Shown here in pieces: positions 1 through 57,183 of a DNA stretch of 58,115 bases (position 1 is its first letter; every line of letters begins with the position of its first letter). Position numbers and translations under genes: made by a program. The notes beneath the pieces were generated by a model, which made no database searches, was not told where the DNA came from, and was given only the letters and a program-made list of their open reading frames with translations. Origin of the DNA: an uncultured Candidatus Saccharibacteria bacterium (GTDB taxonomy: Bacteria > Patescibacteriota > Saccharimonadia > Saccharimonadales > Saccharimonadaceae); the NCBI GenBank assembly GCA_946804195.1, contig CAMPEU010000019.1, positions 1 through 58,115 on the forward strand, in the 5' to 3' direction.

Positions 1-1368
1 AATAGCACAGAGTTTCCAACACTAGAGTCCGTCGAAAGTGTTCTGGCGACGCATACCGTCCCTTCGCTTTATATAGAGAATTATATTGATACCGAGCTGT
101 ACGTATCACATGGAAGGTCTAGCGGAACTTCGGCGATAGTCAGTACGGGTGGTGAAATTTATGGACAAAGCCCGAGCCAATATCCGCTAAAATATGCTAC
201 GCCAGAATGTTCGTCCCCCGCTGAACTCACTACACATATGCGTGCCGGCGAAATTATTATGAACACCGCACTGGCTGGATTGGCGAGGCACGTAGGCAAA
301 TCTGACGTAGTATTTCGACGCAGTGGCAATCCTGATGTATATCGCAACGCCAGGCGTGTCATATCTGAACACAGTCTTGGGTATCGCGAGAGTTATACGA
401 GCGTGAATCTTTTTTCGGAACTCAGAGACAACAAATCTTCGATATTAGAGATTAATCCCGAGGCAAAGTTTTTTGCTGATTTTTTGGCGCTGAGAAAGAT
501 AATTGATGGCGCGGGAATGGTAGCCGATGGCCATTATTCAATCACTCAAAAGCCCGGCGCTATTAATTATCGCAAGTTTGGTGAACAAACAACACACGGC
601 AACAAACAACCATTTGCTCAAAAAGAGCCGAGCAGACTTATGGTTAACAGTGGTGAAGCTAGTAAGTCTGATTGGCAAACAACGTTTGTTATATCTTTGA
701 CTTCGTTGGTACTGCGCCTACTCGAACACAGTACATATCCTGGACATTTACGATTGGCCGATCCAAACCGGGCTGTTCTTGATTTATCCAAGGACCCACA
801 TAGCCTTGTACGACTAGAGTCGGGTGTACAAATGCGTGGAATTGATGTGTTGAGCGAAATTGTTGATGTGGCGATCGAAGAAACGGTGCTCGCTGGTCAA
901 GATATACCAATATATGAAGAACAGGCGGCTTATGCGTTCACGCAATTTCGCAATGATTTAGATATGGTCAGTTTGGCGGAAAATGATGTCACAGCCCTCG
1001 CCGATCGCATCGATTGGGCGGCACGATTTCGTGATTTACAGGAACTTGGTGCAACCTCGCAGACGATGACATCTGCTGACACTAAGCAGATGAATCGAGA
1101 TTTGCGCTGGAGTTCTATAAGGAATGATCCTGCCCGTCAGTATTTTCATAGTATGGGTCATGCAGTACTGGCGAGGAATTTGCAGATACCACGCGTACCG
1201 CAGGGTACGCGTGCAAAGCCACGGCTAGAAATCACTCGACGATTACAGGCGGCTAATGAACTTTCGGTCGTTGTTTGGGACACTGTTATGTCTCAACATC
1301 GTGTTAAATACGAGTTTCCGAACCCCCTGTCGACTGACATACCTACGATGCGGGGATTTTATAAGTAG
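1..1368 (+). CDS. Pup-ligase/Dop (PafA) family protein, 5' end cut by window
   Basis: The reading frame is open from base 1, so the start lies outside the window; 455 codons are visible. The family contains PafA, which joins the small protein Pup to lysines, and Dop, which deamidates Pup or removes it. What I see: YATPEC near codon 65, followed by an H-x-x-AGE motif, then GYRESY, then an FxxxRxxxxGAG stretch and an SDWQTTF...SLTSLVLRLLE block. These match in order the PafA blocks YATPEC, KAGERIL, GCHENY, RQLICGAGKV and SNMSETTTLLKVGSASLVLEMIE. The loop before YATPEC, where PafA has YLD with its catalytic Asp, reads IYGQ here, so that Asp seems to be absent. No Pup or proteasome gene lies in the window. 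It converges on the M13 gene. Family assignment is firm; activity is unknown. Confidence 0.85.
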   Translation, partial: NSTEFPTLESVESVLATHTVPSLYIENYIDTELYVSHGRSSGTSAIVSTGGEIYGQSPSQYPLKYATPECSSPAELTTHMRAGEIIMNTALAGLARHVGKSDVVFRRSGNPDVYRNARRVISEHSLGYRESYTSVNLFSELRDNKSSILEINPEAKFFADFLALRKIIDGAGMVADGHYSITQKPGAINYRKFGEQTTHGNKQPFAQKEPSRLMVNSGEASKSDWQTTFVISLTSLVLRLLEHSTYPGHLRLADPNRAVLDLSKDPHSLVRLESGVQMRGIDVLSEIVDVAIEETVLAGQDIPIYEEQAAYAFTQFRNDLDMVSLAENDVTALADRIDWAARFRDLQELGATSQTMTSADTKQMNRDLRWSSIRNDPARQYFHSMGHAVLARNLQIPRVPQGTRAKPRLEITRRLQAANELSVVVWDTVMSQHRVKYEFPNPLSTDIPTMRGFYK

Positions 1369-46400: not shown

Positions 46401-47612
46401 TCAGCGAATCGGTAAACCGGTGATTGTGCGTCCGATTACCAATCTCTGGATTTCGCTGGTGCCTTCAAAGATCGTAAAGATCTTTGCATCGCGGTGCCAA
46501 CGTTCGACGGGGTAATCACGTGTATAGCCGTTGCCGCCGAGGATTTGGATAGCCTCGTCGGTAACATACACTGCAGTCTCGCTGGCGTGCAACTTTGCCA
46601 TCGAACCTTCCGCTGATTCGAATGTCTTGCCATTGCGTTGCATCCATGCGGCTCGCCACACCAATAGGCGTGATGAGTCGATTCGCATTTTCATGTCTGC
46701 GAGCTTGAAGGCGATAGCCTGAAAGTTACCAATCTTTTGACCGAATTGCTCACGTTGATTGGCGTATTCAAGTGCGTATTCGTATGCAGCGCGTGCGACA
46801 CCGAGCGCCATTGCACCCACTATCGGGCGGGTGCGTTCGAAGGTTGCCATTGCGGCTTGCCCCGATGTACGCTTGCCCTCACGGGCACGAGCGATTCGTT
46901 CTTCAAACTTCTCCATTCCACCCAGAATCAGGTTGCCGGGAAGCCGTACATCGTCGAGCACCACTTCTGCGGTGTGCGATGCGCGGATACCGTGCTTTTT
47001 GAATTTCTGTCCCTGTGACAGTCCCGGGGTGTTTGGGGGAACGATGAATGTGGCTTGACCGCGAGAGCCCAAATCCGGGTGTACCGATGCTACCACGATG
47101 TGGACATCGGCGATACCTCCATTTGTGGCCCAAGTTTTGGTACCATTGAGCACCCATTCATCACTTGCCTGATCGTACCTTGCACGAGAACGCACTGCGC
47201 CAACATCTGAACCGGCATTTGGCTCGGATGAGCAGAATGCGCCCAGGCGTGGGTCATCGGCTGTGCCAAACATTGGGAATAGCCATTCGCCGAGTTGTTC
47301 ATTCGTGCCATTCGCTGCAAGTGCTGCAGCGGCTAGGCCGGTTCCCATGATAGACAAACCGATGCCGGCATCACCCCAGAATAGCTCTTCGTACAGCGTC
47401 GGCATACCGAGACCGCTCTGTTCAAAGAACATTTGCGCGAATGTTTCGGGGCTGTATAAGCCGATCTTGGCCGCTTCCTTGATGATTGGCCATGGGGTTT
47501 CTTCACGTTCGTCCCACTCATGGGCTGCTGGGCGCACCACCTTGGTGGCGAACTCATGTACCCAATCGCGAATGGTAACAACTTCTTCGGGAAGTTCCAG
47601 AGAGAATGTCAT
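46401..47612 (-). CDS. Acyl-CoA dehydrogenase (FadE-like), orphan
   Basis: 403 residues from the Met behind AGGAG; full-length flavoprotein fold. Seen: FCSSEPNAGSD, WVLNGTKTWATNGG, the YANQREQFGQKIGNFQAI helix, QILGGNGYTRDYPVERWHRDAKIFTIFEGTSEIQRLVIGR with the Glu in FEGT at the usual catalytic position. The enzyme forms the alpha-beta double bond of an acyl-CoA and passes electrons to ETF. No other beta-oxidation or ETF gene is in the window. It is GC-richer than its surroundings and looks like actinobacterial FadE, so recent transfer from a host is likely. The true substrate is unknown. Confidence 0.95.
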   Translation of the reverse strand: MTFSLELPEEVVTIRDWVHEFATKVVRPAAHEWDEREETPWPIIKEAAKIGLYSPETFAQMFFEQSGLGMPTLYEELFWGDAGIGLSIMGTGLAAAALAANGTNEQLGEWLFPMFGTADDPRLGAFCSSEPNAGSDVGAVRSRARYDQASDEWVLNGTKTWATNGGIADVHIVVASVHPDLGSRGQATFIVPPNTPGLSQGQKFKKHGIRASHTAEVVLDDVRLPGNLILGGMEKFEERIARAREGKRTSGQAAMATFERTRPIVGAMALGVARAAYEYALEYANQREQFGQKIGNFQAIAFKLADMKMRIDSSRLLVWRAAWMQRNGKTFESAEGSMAKLHASETAVYVTDEAIQILGGNGYTRDYPVERWHRDAKIFTIFEGTSEIQRLVIGRTITGLPIR

Positions 47613-47734
47613 GATTACTCCTGTCGTCTTGTCAATGTGCCTCAATAATTGAAGTTGGATATATTCTGACATATTTTTATGATATATGCAACTATATACA
47701 CGCGTCACTCCCTGTACGACAGATGTCGGTAGTC

Positions 47735-47763
47735 TTGACTCAGGATTGAATTAATGCTATAAT
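47735..47763 (+). promoter_or_regulatory. Near-consensus promoter of the PE-PPE esterase
   Basis: TTGACT (47735-47740), 17 bases, extended TGC-TATAAT (47758-47763). A leader of about 85 bases follows with a CCTGCC-TCGAT-GGCAGG hairpin and AGAAGG 9 bases before the ATG. Confidence 0.85.
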
Positions 47764-47854: not shown

Positions 47855-49225
47855 ATGAAGTCACTGCAGTTTGTCGGAAAAATGCTTCCCGCTGCCCTAG
47901 CGGCAGCGCTTGTCGCAGTAGCTCCACTGTCAGCACCGGGGTCAACTTCGGTTCCCAGTGCCAACTATGATGTTGCTCCGGCAACAAGTGTACTCACCCT
48001 GGAAGGGACACGTGTCCCCTTCGTGCAGAGCACTCCGGTGCAACAGGCGCTTCGCGGCAAAATGTGCAAGGGTGAGTTTACCTGCAAGGCAGTGAACTAT
48101 CCTGCGTCACTTGCGTCGTCATCTACACCCAAGGGTGTGACTGCGCTTAGTGCTGAGCTACAGAAGGCGACAGAGCCTGTCGTCGTCTTTGGTTTTAGCC
48201 AGGGTGCAAGTGTTGCAACGCAGATGATTATCGCACGATCTCAAGGTAAAATGCCCGAAGCGGTAGTACCGGAGTCGTACGTGTTCATTGGCAATCCGCA
48301 TCATGGTTTGAACGGGATGACGAAGATCAAAAATTTCGTAAACCCGTACCCGACCACGAATATTTCGGTTGAGTACGATTTGTTTTCGGATTTTCCGAAC
48401 AATCCGTTCAACTTCCTGGCGATGGCCAATGCATTCGCCGGTTTGGCGCAAGCTCACCGGTTGGGTTACGGTAACGTAGACGTCAACAGCTATGACAACC
48501 TGATTTATCAGGATGGCCAGACGACCTACATTCTCGTGCCGACCAAGAATCTACCCATTTTGCAAGGTTGGCGGGACATCGGGCTCGGCTTTATCGCCGA
48601 TTCGCTCGAGGAACCGTTCAGGCAAAGCATTAATCGGGCCTATGATCGGTCGATGTATGAGGTTCAGACTCCTCCCGCTGCATCAGTAGCGGTACAGGAT
48701 GAAGAGACTCAGCAGGACGCGCCAAATGCACGGACAATGATGACGGTGGATGAACCAAGCCAGGTTCAACCAGGATCGTCTGAAGCTGATTTCGTGGAGC
48801 AGCAGGTTCAATCGGCGGCATCTGGTTCAGTGAAGCAAGAGCCAATCGAACAGCCCGAGCAGTCGCAGTCAGTTAATGATCGTGATCAGGATGGCGATGT
48901 CGAGACGGTGCTTTCGGAGCCCGAAGTCCAACAAGAAGAAGCCGAAGAGCAGTCATTGATCGATTCGATGACTAACAATGAGGAAGAATCTGCGCTGGGC
49001 GACGACGAGGATGTCACTGAAGATATCAAGGCTGAGGCTGAAGCTGAAGCGGACGTTGCATCCAACAACGATGATGATAGCGAAGAGTCGAAGCAACGCT
49101 TTGGTTCATCGTCATCTGAATCGGACAGTCAGACCGCTGGCTCTGATGATGACAATTCGTCATCCGACAGTGATTCCGATTCCAATTCGGACTCCAGCTC
49201 AAGCGACAGCGGTAGCGACGAGTAG
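47855..49225 (+). CDS. Secreted PE-PPE-type serine esterase with long acidic Ser/Asp tail
   Basis: 456 residues. Signal peptide (about 1-30). Residues about 50-270 match the mycobacterial PE-PPE alpha/beta-hydrolase domain: nucleophile elbow GFSQG with Ser115, the D-FPNNPFNFLAMANAFAG segment with Asp179, and AQAHRLGYG with His201; then LVPTKNLPILQGWRDIG and the closing AYDRSMY. The family hydrolyses short- to medium-chain esters and is almost confined to mycolate Actinobacteria. From about 285 on the chain is disordered, Gln/Glu-rich and then nearly pure Ser/Asp (last 25 residues). No LPXTG or anchor is seen. Promoter, leader and terminator mark it as a strong single-gene unit. Confidence 0.82.
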   Translation: MKSLQFVGKMLPAALAAALVAVAPLSAPGSTSVPSANYDVAPATSVLTLEGTRVPFVQSTPVQQALRGKMCKGEFTCKAVNYPASLASSSTPKGVTALSAELQKATEPVVVFGFSQGASVATQMIIARSQGKMPEAVVPESYVFIGNPHHGLNGMTKIKNFVNPYPTTNISVEYDLFSDFPNNPFNFLAMANAFAGLAQAHRLGYGNVDVNSYDNLIYQDGQTTYILVPTKNLPILQGWRDIGLGFIADSLEEPFRQSINRAYDRSMYEVQTPPAASVAVQDEETQQDAPNARTMMTVDEPSQVQPGSSEADFVEQQVQSAASGSVKQEPIEQPEQSQSVNDRDQDGDVETVLSEPEVQQEEAEEQSLIDSMTNNEEESALGDDEDVTEDIKAEAEAEADVASNNDDDSEESKQRFGSSSSESDSQTAGSDDDNSSSDSDSDSNSDSSSSDSGSDE

Positions 49226-49245
49226 AAGTTAACCTTCTGAATTAA

Positions 49246-49291
49246 CCCCATCCAGACGTCTTTGCCAAAGACGAAACTGGGTGGGGTTTTT
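49246..49291 (+). terminator. Terminator of the PE-PPE esterase gene
   Basis: CCCCATCCAG / CTGGGTGGGG outer stem with an inner CGTCTTTG/CAAAGACG stem, then TTTTT. Confidence 0.9.
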
Positions 49292-49313
49292 CATATACTA
49301 AAAAATCATGAGG

Positions 49314-50162
49314 TTATTGACGGTTGTATGCTGATTCTATGTGTTTACGCATAGCGGTGATCTGATCGGCGGTGACGGATTTATTTGCATAAATTGGTAG
49401 CCCCGATTCCTTAGTTAGAACAAATGTTGTGTTGCCTTTGGTCCATACGGTATGGGTTGGGTCATTTATATTAACCTCGCCGTAGTGAACGTGGAGCGAT
49501 AGTTTGCCGGCGGTTGCGTTCTTGGTCGCATCAGAGTTCTTGGTGTCTTGAGGCCAATCAGCCCAGCCATCGTAGCGACGAGCAACATCCACGATGTGCC
49601 AAGGCGTATCGGTCCGGGTCGCATAGCCCAGTGTGCCGTCCCATGTAAGCTTGCCAATTCCGGCACCACCAACGGCGCGATAGGGATTTCCGAACAGGAT
49701 GAATGTGAGTTTTGCAGGACTCGGGGCACTTGCATCATCTGCGTACTGGCGCATCCAATTGGAGGCTACTTGTGCACCCTGACTGTAGGCTAGAACGATT
49801 ATTTTGCCCGATGTTGATCGAAGGGCTGTATTGAGGTTTTTAACGCCTGTAGATATAGACGTACTAGAAGCGCTGCGCGGATAATCTACCACACTCATTT
49901 TGTATGGTGATTTGCTGAAGTAGCCCTGAAACTGCTTTGGCATGTTGTTTGCCAGATGAAAATCCATGCCTGGTAGTGCGAGTACTGTAGCCTTAGCGGG
50001 TATGCCGAGCCCCCGATTATTATCTGATGCGCTACTAGACGCTGCCGTATTGCTGGGTTGCTCGTGGTTTGAACTGGCAGGCGTTTGATTCAGGTATAGG
50101 ATTCGTATCGTAACGAGTGATAGAACTAACAGAATGCCCAGGATAGTAAACATTCGTTTCAT
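49314..50162 (-). CDS. Second PE-PPE-like esterase, membrane-anchored or secreted
   Basis: 282 residues. N-terminal membrane segment (about 5-24) serving as anchor or signal, then a Ser/Asn-rich linker (30-50). The hydrolase domain has AYSQGAQ with Ser127, the hallmark YDGWADWP with Asp202 and LSLHVHYGEV with His224/His226, which match the PE-PPE consensus even better than the neighbour does. It ends without the acidic tail. It converges on the other esterase, with only 88 bases between them. Likely substrate: extracellular lipid or ester; mycolate-type host lipids are a plausible but untested target. Confidence 0.8.
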   Translation of the reverse strand: MKRMFTILGILLVLSLVTIRILYLNQTPASSNHEQPSNTAASSSASDNNRGLGIPAKATVLALPGMDFHLANNMPKQFQGYFSKSPYKMSVVDYPRSASSTSISTGVKNLNTALRSTSGKIIVLAYSQGAQVASNWMRQYADDASAPSPAKLTFILFGNPYRAVGGAGIGKLTWDGTLGYATRTDTPWHIVDVARRYDGWADWPQDTKNSDATKNATAGKLSLHVHYGEVNINDPTHTVWTKGNTTFVLTKESGLPIYANKSVTADQITAMRKHIESAYNRQ

Positions 50163-50328
50163 TCAATACACCTAGCCGTGACGCAACTTAAGAAGCGTTG
50201 ATTACAGAGTGTGCTGTTACTTGATAGCACGGACATACTACCCGTCATAATAGCATAATCAAAAAGAGTAAGCCGCTTGCCATGATATTGCGTATAGGCG
50301 CATCTGGAGGTGGCCTTCATGCCGCTCA

Positions 50329-50337
50329 TGCTAAAAT
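50329..50337 (+). promoter_or_regulatory. Extended -10 of pilin 1
   Basis: TGC-TAAAAT, 7 bases before the ATG at 50345. Confidence 0.65.
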
Positions 50338-50344
50338 AGAATCA

Positions 50345-50905
50345 ATGTTATCAAGGTTTCAGTACACACGAACCAAGCGACGACAAAAATACTCCGGTTT
50401 TACCATTGTTGAGCTACTGATTGTTGTTGTCGTCATAGGTATTCTGGCTGCGATAGTCACGGTCGCATATACGGGTGTTACAGACAGTGCAAGAGCGGCT
50501 TCCGTGGGCGATGCTATGAAGAAGGTCGACAAGGCTATGCAATTGTTCGTGGTAGAAAACGGCTATCCTAGCTGGCCTAGTGAGGGTGTATTAGGAGGTG
50601 GAAACCCGGCACTTCCTACGGCAATTGCAACCGTCCCAACATTAGCAAAATATTTACCGTCAGCCCCCTCGGTCGCTGGGATTAGCGCTTCGGATTGGAG
50701 ATATGACAACGACGGTGATACGTATAATGGTTGCTCAGCTAACTTCAATGGCGTTAATATTATCATCTTTAATTTTACAGATGCCACACTAGCTCAGGGC
50801 ATAGATGACAAAATTGATGACGGCAATGTATCATGCGGAAAGCTGCGATACGTTAGCGCTAGTTCGCAACTAGTATATTCATTGAGTATAGATGGCGCGC
50901 TGTAG
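50345..50905 (+). CDS. Type IV pilin-like protein 1
   Basis: 186 residues. Basic leader, then the prepilin cleavage site G-FTIVELL (Glu at +5) and a hydrophobic helix. The body differs from the other four: it has an Asp-rich loop (YDNDGDTYNGC) and two Cys, and lacks the CLGTGFP motif. A prepilin peptidase would cut after Gly and the pilus machinery would assemble it; neither is encoded here. The ATG after the extended -10 was chosen over the longer frame. The helix-coding stretch is identical over 47 bases to pilin 3. Confidence 0.92.
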   Translation: MLSRFQYTRTKRRQKYSGFTIVELLIVVVVIGILAAIVTVAYTGVTDSARAASVGDAMKKVDKAMQLFVVENGYPSWPSEGVLGGGNPALPTAIATVPTLAKYLPSAPSVAGISASDWRYDNDGDTYNGCSANFNGVNIIIFNFTDATLAQGIDDKIDDGNVSCGKLRYVSASSQLVYSLSIDGAL

Positions 50906-50985
50906 AGTTGATACTTCTATAACAACTTTAATGCTTCGACTGCACGGACAGTAGGGGACTTTTTACGCTATTATAAAAGTGCTTA

Positions 50986-50994
50986 TGCTAGTAT
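50986..50994 (+). promoter_or_regulatory. Extended -10 of pilin 2
   Basis: TGC-TAGTAT, 6 bases before the ATG at 51001; no Shine-Dalgarno site. Confidence 0.65.
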
Positions 50995-51000
50995 AAACAT

Positions 51001-51612
51001 ATGAGTATGCGTACTCCAAAATTATTTTTTTTGAACTCAAAGTATATAAAATCATCTGGTTTCACAATTGTCGAACTTCTAATCGTTGTTGTAGTTATCG
51101 GTATTCTTGCGGCTATTGTTACGGTTGCGTATACCGGCATCTCAAAGACAGCGCAAACAGCCTCGATTACGAGTGAATTAAAGGCATGGCAAAAGCTCCT
51201 TGAGGCCTATAAGGCAACCAACGGGGCCTATCCTGAACCAGCGGCATCGAACCCCACCTCTAGTGGCGGACCTGGCTCAAGCGCTCTAAATAGATACTGT
51301 CTTGGTACGGGGTTTCCACAGTCCGGGGGGAGCGGCTACTGTCAAGTTATCAGTACCACGTCTATATACAGAATTGCGGAATCAACTGGTGCATACTTAT
51401 TGTCGCAACTCTCTACCGTAGGTGTGCCACCAAGTAATTCGACAAAGTATACTTATGGTACTGTCGTCGGTCCTTGGCTTTGGTATGTTAATGCTACCAA
51501 CGTTCGTCTGTATACCACCTATCCTGGCGGTACTACCTGTCCTACTGGTGCAACTACCGGATATGGCAACGCCGATCGACAGGATTGCTACTTTATACTC
51601 GACTATAGCTAG
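51001..51612 (+). CDS. Type IV pilin-like protein 2
   Basis: 203 residues. SG-FTIVELLIVVVVIGILAAIV cleavage site and helix (about 18-40), then a globular head with SGGPGSSALNRYCLGTGFP, AESTGAYLLSQL, TYGTVVGPWLWY and a C-terminal TTCPTG...RQDCYFILDYS. Four conserved head cysteines suggest two disulphides. It shares this head type with pilins 3, 4 and 5, and shares DNA blocks with pilin 4 just after the helix. Confidence 0.93.
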   Translation: MSMRTPKLFFLNSKYIKSSGFTIVELLIVVVVIGILAAIVTVAYTGISKTAQTASITSELKAWQKLLEAYKATNGAYPEPAASNPTSSGGPGSSALNRYCLGTGFPQSGGSGYCQVISTTSIYRIAESTGAYLLSQLSTVGVPPSNSTKYTYGTVVGPWLWYVNATNVRLYTTYPGGTTCPTGATTGYGNADRQDCYFILDYS

Positions 51613-51639
51613 TAGATAAATGTTGTCATAAAATACTTA

Positions 51640-51648
51640 TGCTAAACT
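51640..51648 (+). promoter_or_regulatory. Extended -10 of pilin 3
   Basis: TGC-TAAACT, 6 bases before the ATG at 51655. The upstream GTCATAAAA-N2-CTTATGCTA is shared with pilin 5. Confidence 0.65.
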
Positions 51649-51654
51649 AACATT

Positions 51655-52248
51655 ATGAGTATGTGCACTCTCGGACGGCTGCTTTTTAAATCGAAAATTC
51701 GAAGGTCATCGGGCTTTACGATCGTTGAGCTACTGATTGTTGTTGTCGTCATAGGTATTCTGGCTGCGATTGTTACGATCGCGTATAACGGTATTCAACA
51801 GCGAGCACAGGTGGCAGCAATTACAAGTGAATTGAAGCAGTGGCACAAACTTTTTGAAGCATATAGAGCAATCAACGGTTACTATCCCGCCCCATCGGCA
51901 ACGCCAACAACTGGCGGCGGGCCGGGATCAAATGTTTTGGGCGGATATTGTTTAGGAACAGGATTTCCAAATAATCACTGCTACCTACCTTATGCGTCAT
52001 CTTACGGCGCCGCCGAATCTACGGGCACGGCACTGATGGCGGCATTGTCGACTGTTGGCACTCCACCAAAAAACTCCGCAAAGTATACGTACGAGACTGT
52101 GGGCCCGTTTCTTTGGTATAGATCAGATACGGATGTTAGACTGTTAACTACATTTCCAGCGGGCACTCCATGTCCCAGCGGAACGGTTTCGCAGTATGCT
52201 AACACGGTGAGACAAGAGTGTTTCTTCAGATTAGATTACACCGAATAA
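51655..52248 (+). CDS. Type IV pilin-like protein 3
   Basis: 197 residues. SG-FTIVELLIVVVVIGILAAIV, then AYNGIQQRAQ where pilins 2 and 4 have AYTGISK. The head keeps GGGPGSNVLGGYCLGTGFP, AESTGTALMAALSTVGTPPKNSAKYTYETVGPFLWY and TPCPSG...RQECFFRLDY, with the same four-Cys plan. Its helix DNA is identical to that of pilin 1 over 47 bases, while its head belongs to the pilin 2-5 type, pointing to recombination. Confidence 0.93.
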   Translation: MSMCTLGRLLFKSKIRRSSGFTIVELLIVVVVIGILAAIVTIAYNGIQQRAQVAAITSELKQWHKLFEAYRAINGYYPAPSATPTTGGGPGSNVLGGYCLGTGFPNNHCYLPYASSYGAAESTGTALMAALSTVGTPPKNSAKYTYETVGPFLWYRSDTDVRLLTTFPAGTPCPSGTVSQYANTVRQECFFRLDYTE

Positions 52249-52298
52249 CATAACCTTTACTGGCACAGAACTCTAAATTGCGAATCGCGTACCACTCA

Positions 52299-52307
52299 TG
52301 CTAAACT
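52299..52307 (+). promoter_or_regulatory. Extended -10 of pilin 4
   Basis: TGC-TAAACT, 6 bases before the ATG at 52314, intact although the gene is frameshifted. Confidence 0.6.
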
Positions 52308-52313
52308 TCAGCT

Positions 52314-52918
52314 ATGGTTGGGCTATTTTTGAAATTGTCAAAACAACAAAAGCACAACCCATTAATGAAGGGTTTTACCATCGTCGAACTCCTCATTGTT
52401 GTCGTTGTCATAGGCCAATCGTCACAGTTGCGTATACCGGCATCTCAAAGTCAGCACAAACAGCCTCGATTACTAGTGAGTTAAAACAGTGGCACAAACT
52501 TTTTGAAGCGTACAAGGCTGTCAATGGTAGTTACCCTGCGCCCGCACCGTCGAGTCCTGCAATGAGTGGTGGGCCGGGCACGAATGCATTGAGTACCTAT
52601 TGTCTGGGGACTGGATTTCCACAGTCTGCTGGGGCTGGATATTGTCGGGCTGCTAATTCAACAGCTACATATCGCGCCACCGAAACGACGGGCGCCTCAC
52701 TCATTACACAATTGACGACTGTAGGTACGCCACCAAAAAATTCTGCAAAGTACGTCTATGATACCAATGTCGTTGGACCGCATCTTGTGTATAATGGCGT
52801 GACTGATGTACGGCTATACTCAATTTTTCCACCCGCTAGTGCATGCCCGTCTGGCATGATTCTCGGATACACTAACGCCAATAGGATTGATTGCTATATA
52901 CGTTTAGACTACAGCTGA
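52314..52918 (+). pseudogene. Type IV pilin 4, frameshifted in the helix
   Basis: From ATG 52314 the frame reads MVGLFLKLSKQQ..., then MKG-FTIVELLIVVVVIG and leaves the pilin frame at about 52415. Compared with its sisters, the codons for I-L-A-A are replaced by a shorter junction: about 10 bases are missing. The rest of the gene, from IVTVAYTGISKSAQ to the C-terminal RIDCYIRLDYS, is intact in another frame with all head motifs and cysteines. So this is a single-lesion gene with a live promoter: a recent pseudogene, a silent donor cassette or a switched-off variant. Confidence 0.85.
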
Positions 52919-52972
52919 TACAACGTCAGTGTTTAAGTGTGAAATGAGAGATTATCGTCATAAAAACGCTTA

Positions 52973-52981
52973 TGCTAAAAT
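52973..52981 (+). promoter_or_regulatory. Extended -10 of pilin 5
   Basis: TGC-TAAAAT, 6 bases before the ATG at 52988, preceded by GTCATAAAA-N2-CTTATGCTA as at pilin 3. Confidence 0.65.
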
Positions 52982-52987
52982 ACACTC

Positions 52988-53605
52988 ATGGATACTAGCG
53001 CCCTTAAAGAATTATTTTTGAATTCAAAACGTAAGCAATCATATGGTTTCACGGTCGTTGAACTACTTATTGTCATCGCTGTTATCGGTATCCTAGCATC
53101 GGTAGTTACAGTTGGGTACAGCAGCGTTACGCAGTCCTCGCAAACGACTGCAATTACAAGTGAATTAGAACAGTGGCACAAGCTCTTTAGGGTTTATAAG
53201 GCTACCAATGGTAGCTATCCCTTACCCGTAGCACCTCCGGCAAACCCCACGACCAGCGGTGGACCTGGTACGAGCGCAGATCACAGATACTGTCTCGGCA
53301 CAGGCTTTCCTTCAAGCGGTGGTAGTAACTGGTGTTTTGTTGTTAACTCAGGTTCAGTATATAGAGTCGCGGAATCTACTGGTGCGTACTTAATGTCCCA
53401 ACTAGAAACGGCTGGAACGCTACCGTTGAATACTACGAAGTATTCATATGGTACGGTTACGGGTCCCTTCTTGGGATATGTTAGTGCTAGTGATGTACGT
53501 TTAGGTACAGTATATCCCCCAGGCACTACGTGTCCGTCGGGGATGATTCAGGAATACAGTAGCTCTACTCGTGTGGATTGTTTCATTAGATTAAACTATA
53601 ACTAG
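52988..53605 (+). CDS. Type IV pilin-like protein 5
   Basis: 205 residues. YG-FTVVELLIVIAVIGILASVVTV helix, the most divergent of the set. The head has SGGPGTSADHRYCLGTGFP, AESTGAYLMSQLETAGTLPLNTTKYSYGTVTGPFLGY and TTCPSG...RVDCFIRLNYN with the four conserved Cys. It is an independent leaderless unit; no operon links it to pilin 4. Confidence 0.93.
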   Translation: MDTSALKELFLNSKRKQSYGFTVVELLIVIAVIGILASVVTVGYSSVTQSSQTTAITSELEQWHKLFRVYKATNGSYPLPVAPPANPTTSGGPGTSADHRYCLGTGFPSSGGSNWCFVVNSGSVYRVAESTGAYLMSQLETAGTLPLNTTKYSYGTVTGPFLGYVSASDVRLGTVYPPGTTCPSGMIQEYSSSTRVDCFIRLNYN

Positions 53606-56068: not shown

Positions 56069-57076
56069 TTAAGAGCTAGGGCTGTCTAGTCCCGTGACAC
56101 GCCAAGCTAATTTACCAATCTTGCTTTTGTGTTCGCCGTCGCGCATGCCTATATTATCTGCGAGCTTTCGTGCATCCGGAAACATGTTTTGAAGGTTTTC
56201 TTTGCCGGCATCTGATTTAAACCATAATTCTTTAGCGACGGATTTCGGAATACCCATATCTTTTCGTGCCCTTTTGTCGGGTTTTATCATAACGCTGGCA
56301 AAAGATCTTAGCGTAAGCGGGAGTGCGACGGCGAGCAATGCACGTTGTGTGCGAGTCATTTTTTCGGGCTGGACGTGGCGTTCAAGATACATGTGCGCAA
56401 AGCTGATATGACGAGCTTCCTCGGATATATGTACTTCCATAATCTTGTCTAATAATTTTGGGATATTGTCGTTCTTGCGGATAGATCTTTGCAGGTGGTC
56501 AACTGGCTCTTCGCCTGCTAGGACTGCCGACCAAAAAAGGATAGGTAACTTTCTGCCAGCATAATCTGACAATAATGGAACGATACGTCGGAACCATGCA
56601 GGTGCGCCTTTTGTATCGACAGAAGTACGTTTAACGAATTCTCGAAACATTTGAATATGATGTGTTTCTTCGGTGGCCTCGTGTAGTACGTAGCGAGCCT
56701 CAAGTGAATCTATTGGTTGCTTGTCAACAAAGCTCATAGCCCCATTGATTAATGATTGCTCAAATTGCGAGCCAACCTCTACGGTATGCGCATACCGGTA
56801 TTTACCGATCCGAATCTGTTCTTCTTCGGGCAATGATTGATACCATGGATGAGCACCTAGTTCCAATTCGGGCCCAAGTTTCCACTTCGAATCGTTTGGA
56901 TCTAAGGCATATTCTGGGTCATCCCAGGGTATAGTAACAAACGCCTCAGAGCGCCTACCGTGCGCTGATCTATCGCATAGTCTGTCGAGCTCCTTCTCGT
57001 AGTCTGCCTTGGAACCACCGCCCCTACCGCGACTACGGCGTGGACGCTGGGTGTTGTCTATTGGCTTTTTTTCCAT
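56069..57076 (-). CDS. AurF-like diiron oxygenase
   Basis: 335 residues from the Met behind AAGGAG. A ferritin-like helical core with two carboxylate/His clusters: E-x-x-x-ETHHIQMF around residues 135-150, an AGEEPVDH segment, and HISEEARH (HxxxExxH), which together match the seven iron ligands of AurF. Relatives oxidise aryl amines or other small substrates with O2; in mycobacteria they are common and mostly uncharacterised. The N-terminus is a basic Arg/Gly-rich extension (RPRRSRGRGGG). An oxygen-using enzyme is odd in a reduced CPR genome; transfer from an actinobacterium is plausible. Confidence 0.88.
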   Translation of the reverse strand: MEKKPIDNTQRPRRSRGRGGGSKADYEKELDRLCDRSAHGRRSEAFVTIPWDDPEYALDPNDSKWKLGPELELGAHPWYQSLPEEEQIRIGKYRYAHTVEVGSQFEQSLINGAMSFVDKQPIDSLEARYVLHEATEETHHIQMFREFVKRTSVDTKGAPAWFRRIVPLLSDYAGRKLPILFWSAVLAGEEPVDHLQRSIRKNDNIPKLLDKIMEVHISEEARHISFAHMYLERHVQPEKMTRTQRALLAVALPLTLRSFASVMIKPDKRARKDMGIPKSVAKELWFKSDAGKENLQNMFPDARKLADNIGMRDGEHKSKIGKLAWRVTGLDSPSS

Positions 57077-57183
57077 ATTTTCATCACTCCTTGACTTGTC
57101 TACTATTTTATTCCCTTGATGATAAAAAATCAATGTTATAAAACAGCATGCTCTACCTGACAATACTCAATGCTACATGCAAT

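What the first reader, a model, noticed from the sequence alone, without database searches (positions are those of the whole stretch)
47855..50162. Convergent pair of secreted PE-PPE-type esterases
Two neighbouring, convergent genes encode exported serine hydrolases with the PE-PPE hallmarks (G-x-SQG, YDGWADWP-like segment, His). This domain is typical of mycobacteria and their relatives. In a host-attached Saccharibacterium such enzymes could cleave or remodel host mycolate or other ester lipids, helping attachment, entry or nutrient release. I know of no described system of this kind.
Basis: partly seen in the sequence, partly recalled or inferred. Interest (0 to 1): 0.85.

Follow-up and report, generated by a model that had tools for sequence, protein, structure and literature searches.

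The report
Mycobacteria-type esterases in a Saccharibacterium
A tiny bacterium of a group that lives on other bacteria carries two neighbouring exported enzymes of a family otherwise found in mycobacteria, their relatives and their viruses, probably to cut the waxy outer layer of its host, alongside sugar-cutting enzymes for the layer beneath.

Summary
Genes A (47855-49225, +) and B (49314-50162, -) encode predicted exported serine hydrolases with the PE-PPE (PF08237) hydrolase domain (114 and 86 bits; cut-off 21), Ser-Asp-His candidates, and a strong two-way terminator between them. Neither has an N-terminal PE or PPE domain. The genome (989 kb) holds two further PF08237 genes and two tandem exported DUF4185/GH183 genes, a family of endo-D-arabinanases. 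In its genus 9 of 10 genomes carry PF08237 hits and 7 of 10 carry GH183 or GH172; outside it, PE-PPE is nearly absent from about 400 sampled Patescibacteria. The closest relatives are mycobacterial and mycobacteriophage proteins; all 60 phage records matched by A infect Mycobacterium or Gordonia. A tree rejects a single origin of the canonical Saccharibacterial copies. Best reading: enzymes that hydrolyse ester lipids of a mycolic-acid-bearing host's outer membrane, complementing the arabinanases. Substrate, host, and hydrolysis versus acyl transfer are untested. A probable Ca. Mycosynbacter amalyticus genome lacks canonical PE-PPE genes. New setting and combination for a known family; I found no paper linking PE-PPE enzymes to Saccharibacteria.

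The parts
47735..47763 (+). promoter-like site upstream of gene A (TTGACT-17-TATAAT, TG before the -10)
   Evidence: consensus scan, 11 of 12 matches; about 90 nt before the ATG; function not shown
47855..49225 (+). gene A: exported PE-PPE-domain serine hydrolase, 456 aa
   Evidence: ORF; PF08237 E 8.2e-33; ortholog 84% identical over the domain in G387/JAUIFG010000010.1
47855..47935 (+). gene A: N-terminal signal-peptide-like segment
   Evidence: sequence; hydropathy maximum 2.0 within residues 6-27; no signal-peptide predictor available
47966..48679 (+). gene A: alpha/beta-hydrolase (PE-PPE) domain; Ser115 codon 48197-48199, Asp175 48377-48379, His201 48455-48457
   Evidence: PF08237 match; invariant triad columns; AlphaFold2 model pLDDT 81, pTM 0.79; Foldseek
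48695..49222 (+). gene A: 176-aa acidic Ser/Asp/Glu-rich C-terminal tail
   Evidence: net charge -48, pI 4.05; similar tails on several Saccharibacterial paralogs; tail dN/dS about 0.16
49244..49291 (.). two-way intrinsic terminator between A and B
   Evidence: 12-bp plus 7-bp stem, -30.9 kcal/mol on + (z -6.7) and -26.1 on - (z -5.0); T run on the + strand
49314..50162 (-). gene B: PE-PPE-domain serine hydrolase, 282 aa; Ser127 codon 49782-49784, Asp198 49569-49571, His224 49491-49493
   Evidence: ORF; PF08237 E 3.7e-24; orthologs in G362 and G385
50091..50150 (-). gene B: N-terminal hydrophobic segment, probable membrane anchor
   Evidence: hydropathy 2.48 at residues 6-22, no lipobox Cys

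Best explanation
A and B are exported serine esterases of the PE-PPE hydrolase family. The Ser-Asp-His triad attacks acyl esters; A is released or surface-held with an acidic disordered tail, B is tethered by its N terminus. They act on ester-linked lipids of the outer (myco)membrane of a mycolic-acid-containing actinobacterial host, such as acylated trehaloses or mycolates on arabinogalactan, while GH183 arabinanases (and GH172 in some genus members) cut the arabinan beneath. Together they loosen the host envelope for attachment, feeding or lysis, in the way lysin B and arabinanases serve phages of these hosts. Shown by computation: family, triad positions, conserved genes, genus restriction, coexistence with GH183, relatives in mycobacteria and their phages, more than one origin. 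Inferred: export, catalysis, substrate, host, role.
For: PF08237 well over cut-off, cutinase far weaker. Triad residues invariant in nine aligned Saccharibacterial PE-PPE proteins. The model of A matches the Mycobacterium phage Chris hydrolase (E 9e-18, TM 0.71), a Gordonia phage PE-PPE protein and lysin B proteins in the viral library, and, weakly, acetylxylan esterases and Mtb Rv3802c among solved structures. All 60 phage records matching A, and all 17 matching B, are Mycobacterium or Gordonia phages; 25 weak matches of A are lysin B/endolysin of Gordonia phages. All plasmid matches are Mycobacteriales. Genus g1: PE-PPE in 9 of 10, against 5 of about 402 others, only one of which (G391) covers most of the domain. 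GH183 in the own genome, two tandem exported copies, one lipoprotein-like; GH183 or GH172 in 7 of 10 genus members. The C14 PE-PPE gene is divergent to an exported GH43 gene. No enoyl-CoA hydratase in the genome, which speaks against fatty-acid oxidation as the purpose. Biochemistry of the families: Rv1430 esterase (PMC3562317); GH183 and GH172 activity on mycobacterial arabinan, including GH172 of M. amalyticus (PMC10115798).
Against: No activity, host or localisation data. Two genus members with PE-PPE (G385, G386) have neither GH183 nor GH172, and G383 (81% complete) has none of the three. G200, probably M. amalyticus with Gordonia hosts, has no canonical PE-PPE, so these enzymes are not required for a mycolata host. 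Characterised PE-PPE enzymes include an acyltransferase (Chp2; PMC4183827; that Chp2 is PE-PPE is own knowledge). The structure of B was predicted poorly (pLDDT 56).
Confidence: 0.62

Rival explanations
1. Acyltransferases rather than hydrolases: like mycobacterial Chp2, they move acyl chains between trehalose or other glycolipids, building or altering the epibiont's own surface with host-derived lipids.
For: Chp2 acts by transesterification (PMC4183827); B shares Chp2's plan of one N-terminal membrane segment plus hydrolase domain; weak match of both to NCBIfam acyltransferase PE (27.7 bits A, 38.7 bits B).
Against: The NCBIfam cut-off is 580 bits, so neither is the equivalog. Nearest relatives include phage proteins, for which lipid synthesis is a less likely task.
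Confidence: 0.15
2. General secreted lipases that free fatty acids from host or environmental lipids for membrane building, with no special tie to mycolates.
For: Saccharibacteria generally depend on outside lipids (own knowledge). Rv1430 takes generic short and medium chain esters (PMC3562317). A lone acyl-CoA dehydrogenase lies beside A and is the only PF00441 in the genome.
Against: No enoyl-CoA hydratase. Nearly restricted to one genus, though lipid need is phylum-wide. Phage relatives only in mycolata phages. Arabinanase genes alongside.
Confidence: 0.18
3. Assembly artefact: mycobacterial DNA misbinned into this genome.
For: The family is typical of mycobacteria.
Against: Same contig as ribosomal L10/L12 and other core genes, and the neighbourhood of A is conserved in G387; GC 0.53 and 0.49 against a window mean of 0.45; orthologs in several other genomes of the genus.
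Confidence: 0.01

Closest known systems
PE-PPE hydrolase domain proteins of Mycobacterium (PF08237; Rv1430/PE16 esterase)
   Same: Profile match, Ser-Asp-His positions, Asp-His spacing of 26
   Different: No N-terminal PE or PPE domain; Saccharibacterial; long acidic tail on A; about 26-35% identity to the mycobacterial proteins compared
PE-PPE hydrolases of mycobacteriophages (Chris, Marshawn, SirPhilip, KayaCho, Jolie2; phrog_9390)
   Same: Best phage sequence and fold matches
   Different: Phage genes, about 27-35% identity; I know of no functional test of them
Lysin B, mycolyl-arabinogalactan esterase of mycolata phages (phrog_102)
   Same: Weak sequence and fold similarity, probably a like role
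   Different: A distant subfamily; scores far weaker than for PE-PPE
Chp2/Rv1184c and NCBIfam acyltransferase PE (NF041570)
   Same: Same kind of fold and, for B, the same anchor-plus-domain plan
   Different: Scores far below the equivalog cut-off
GH172/GH183 enzymes of Ca. Mycosynbacter amalyticus
   Same: GH183 genes in this genome; GH172 in genus-mates
   Different: The published set as read here names no esterase arm; G200, its probable genome, lacks canonical PE-PPE

Membership tests
PE-PPE domain (PF08237) | Curated profile score over 21 bits | tested here: met
   114.2 and 85.9 bits
PE-PPE domain (PF08237) | GxSxG/S pentapeptide | tested here: inconclusive
   A: GFSQG, met. B: AYSQG, departs in the first residue
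PE-PPE domain (PF08237) | Ser-Asp-His triad with the known spacing | tested here: met
   Asp-His 26 in both, as in Rv1430; invariant in nine proteins
PE-PPE domain (PF08237) | alpha/beta-hydrolase fold | tested here: met
   A: pLDDT 81, Foldseek to phage hydrolases and esterases. For B alone inconclusive
PE-PPE domain (PF08237) | Esterase activity | not testable with these tools
   needs expression and assay
PE or PPE protein families | N-terminal PE or PPE domain | tested here: not met
   no such Pfam match
Cutinase (PF01083) | Best match to the cutinase profile | tested here: not met
   30.5 and 25.5 bits, far below PE-PPE; B under the cut-off of 25.9
Lysin B | Close match to lysin B proteins | tested here: not met
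   phrog_102 E 1e-5 (A) and 3e-13 (B); Gordonia lysin B E 3e-3: distant relation only
Acyltransferase PE (NF041570) | Score over 580 bits | tested here: not met
   27.7 and 38.7 bits

The most novel reading that the evidence does not exclude
This genus of Saccharibacteria has repeatedly captured PE-PPE enzymes from its mycolic-acid-bearing hosts or their phages and combined them with arabinanases into a phage-like set for taking apart the mycomembrane, which would be the first lipid-directed weapon described in Patescibacteria as far as I could search.
Probability: 0.4. Interest if true: 0.82.

Novelty: new variant of a known kind. Interest (0 to 1): 0.62.

Why it matters
How tiny parasitic Saccharibacteria breach the waxy mycomembrane is open. 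Mycolic acid pathway mutations are reported to make Gordonia amarae resistant to M. amalyticus (title of Rose et al. 2025 as cited in PMC12592800; paper not held). A genus with exported PE-PPE hydrolases plus arabinanases gives named enzymes to test and a gene signature for predicting mycolata hosts from genomes, of use against foaming Gordonia in wastewater.

Tried and rejected
Ordinary cutinase or lipase: rejected on scores. Recent duplication of A into B: not supported; the domains are about 26-28% identical and are separated in the tree by mycobacterial rows, though one clade for A+B is not rejected (p 0.22). Single acquisition of the canonical Saccharibacterial copies: rejected (p 1e-5). 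PDB sequence search of each protein gave only weak matches. The model of B was too poor to interpret. PF08237 hits in genus g3 (L006-L008) and G067 (L009) look cutinase-like with extra domains and cover only part of the profile; not counted as full PE-PPE. An alignment of nine paralogs had no stretch conserved enough to scan with. Rose 2025 is not held; Batinovic 2021 did not turn up among the held papers.

Full report
Observation. The two ORFs are real and convergent. Both pass the PF08237 cut-off widely, with cutinase a distant second. Triad positions are A Ser115/Asp175/His201 and B Ser127/Asp198/His224; the Asp-His spacing of 26 equals that of Rv1430. B has AYSQG, so the stated G-x-SQG holds only for A. 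A starts with a signal-peptide-like segment; B with a hydrophobic segment that looks like an anchor, the plan described for Chp2. A ends in a 176-residue acidic Ser/Asp/Glu tail, also seen on several paralogs of the genus. A strong terminator lies between the genes, and a near-consensus promoter before A.

Genome and genus. The window's genome has 989 kb and is 99.8% complete, with four PF08237 places: A, B, one on C14 and a weak one on C10. On C14 the gene lies divergent to an exported GH43 enzyme; on C10 three tandem divergent hydrolases, two of them with Pro/Ala-rich tails, follow one another. In the phylum sample 7 of 380 genomes gave a match; in the genus 9 of 10 did. Against about 402 other genomes the excess is large (Fisher 2e-14), but the genomes are not independent, so the number is only descriptive.

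Companions. Two tandem DUF4185 (GH183) genes with export signals, one with a lipoprotein-like motif, lie on C1. GH183 occurs in 6 and GH172 in 4 of 10 genus members; 7 have at least one. GH183 and GH172 enzymes were shown to cut mycobacterial arabinan, and GH172 from Ca. Mycosynbacter amalyticus was active (PMC10115798). G200, of the same family, 1.1 Mb in one contig with one GH183 and one GH172, fits M. amalyticus but is not named here. It has no PF08237 match, only a divergent GYSEG hydrolase.

Relatives and descent. Phage matches to A (60 records) and B (17) are all phages of Mycobacterium or Gordonia. Plasmid matches are Mycobacterium, Mycolicibacterium and Tsukamurella. The best match outside Patescibacteria in the genome collection is Mycolicibacterium at 35%. 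In a 59-row tree the Saccharibacterial rows are scattered among actinobacterial ones; holding 14 canonical rows together is rejected (p 1e-5), holding the A and B orthologs together is not (p 0.22). Long branches limit the detail, and the actinobacterial set was drawn from hits to A and from the genomes holding them, so the donors are not identified.

Gene order. In G387 the acyl-CoA dehydrogenase, response regulator, A, DUF348 protein and AurF-like gene keep company, but B and the pilin genes between A and the DUF348 gene are missing there. The two genes are therefore not a fixed pair across the genus and need not act together.

Structure. The model of A is good; its best viral matches are a mycobacteriophage hydrolase and esterase, a Gordonia phage PE-PPE protein, then Gordonia lysin B. 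Solved-structure matches are acetylxylan esterases and Rv3802c at low TM-score. B could not be modelled well.

Mechanism and verdict. The simplest reading is host-directed ester hydrolysis in the mycomembrane next to arabinan cleavage. The missing enoyl-CoA hydratase makes fatty-acid oxidation unlikely as the purpose, although freed fatty acids could still feed membrane building. Acyl transfer remains possible. No paper in the held library joins PE-PPE with Saccharibacteria or with the candidate phyla radiation; that library lacks most subscription papers, so priority cannot be claimed firmly.

Noticed in passing
L117 4783-9974 (G000:C10); relatives L111, L018, L025-L028: Three tandem divergent alpha/beta hydrolases (310, 386, 852 aa; GYSEG, SFSLG, GFSEG), two with Pro/Ala-rich tails; related proteins in the genus and in G200. 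The larger two match no Pfam family.
   Followed up: partly
L116 3088-6112 (G000:C14): Exported GH43 gene divergent to a third PE-PPE gene with an acidic tail.
   Followed up: partly
window 46401-47708: Lone acyl-CoA dehydrogenase, the only PF00441 in the genome, next to gene A and also near it in G387; no enoyl-CoA hydratase found.
   Followed up: partly
window 50282-53605: Five tandem genes related to type IV pilins beside gene B, varied in their C-terminal parts; not present as a cluster at this place in G387.
   Followed up: no
window 56069-57163: AurF-type diiron N-oxygenase (PF11583 E 2e-70), unexpected in a Saccharibacterium; also present in G387.
   Followed up: no
window 238-1368: Pup-ligase-like protein (PF03136 E 2e-26).
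   Followed up: no
L094, L095 and other phage records: RefSeq calls the mycobacteriophage PE-PPE hydrolases 'DNA binding protein' while the matching GenBank records say hydrolase or esterase; probable misannotation, carried into phrog_9390.
   Followed up: no
L039: A contig labelled Bifidobacterium breve MAG carries a PE-PPE gene that groups tightly with mycobacterial ones; probably a mislabelled bin.
   Followed up: no
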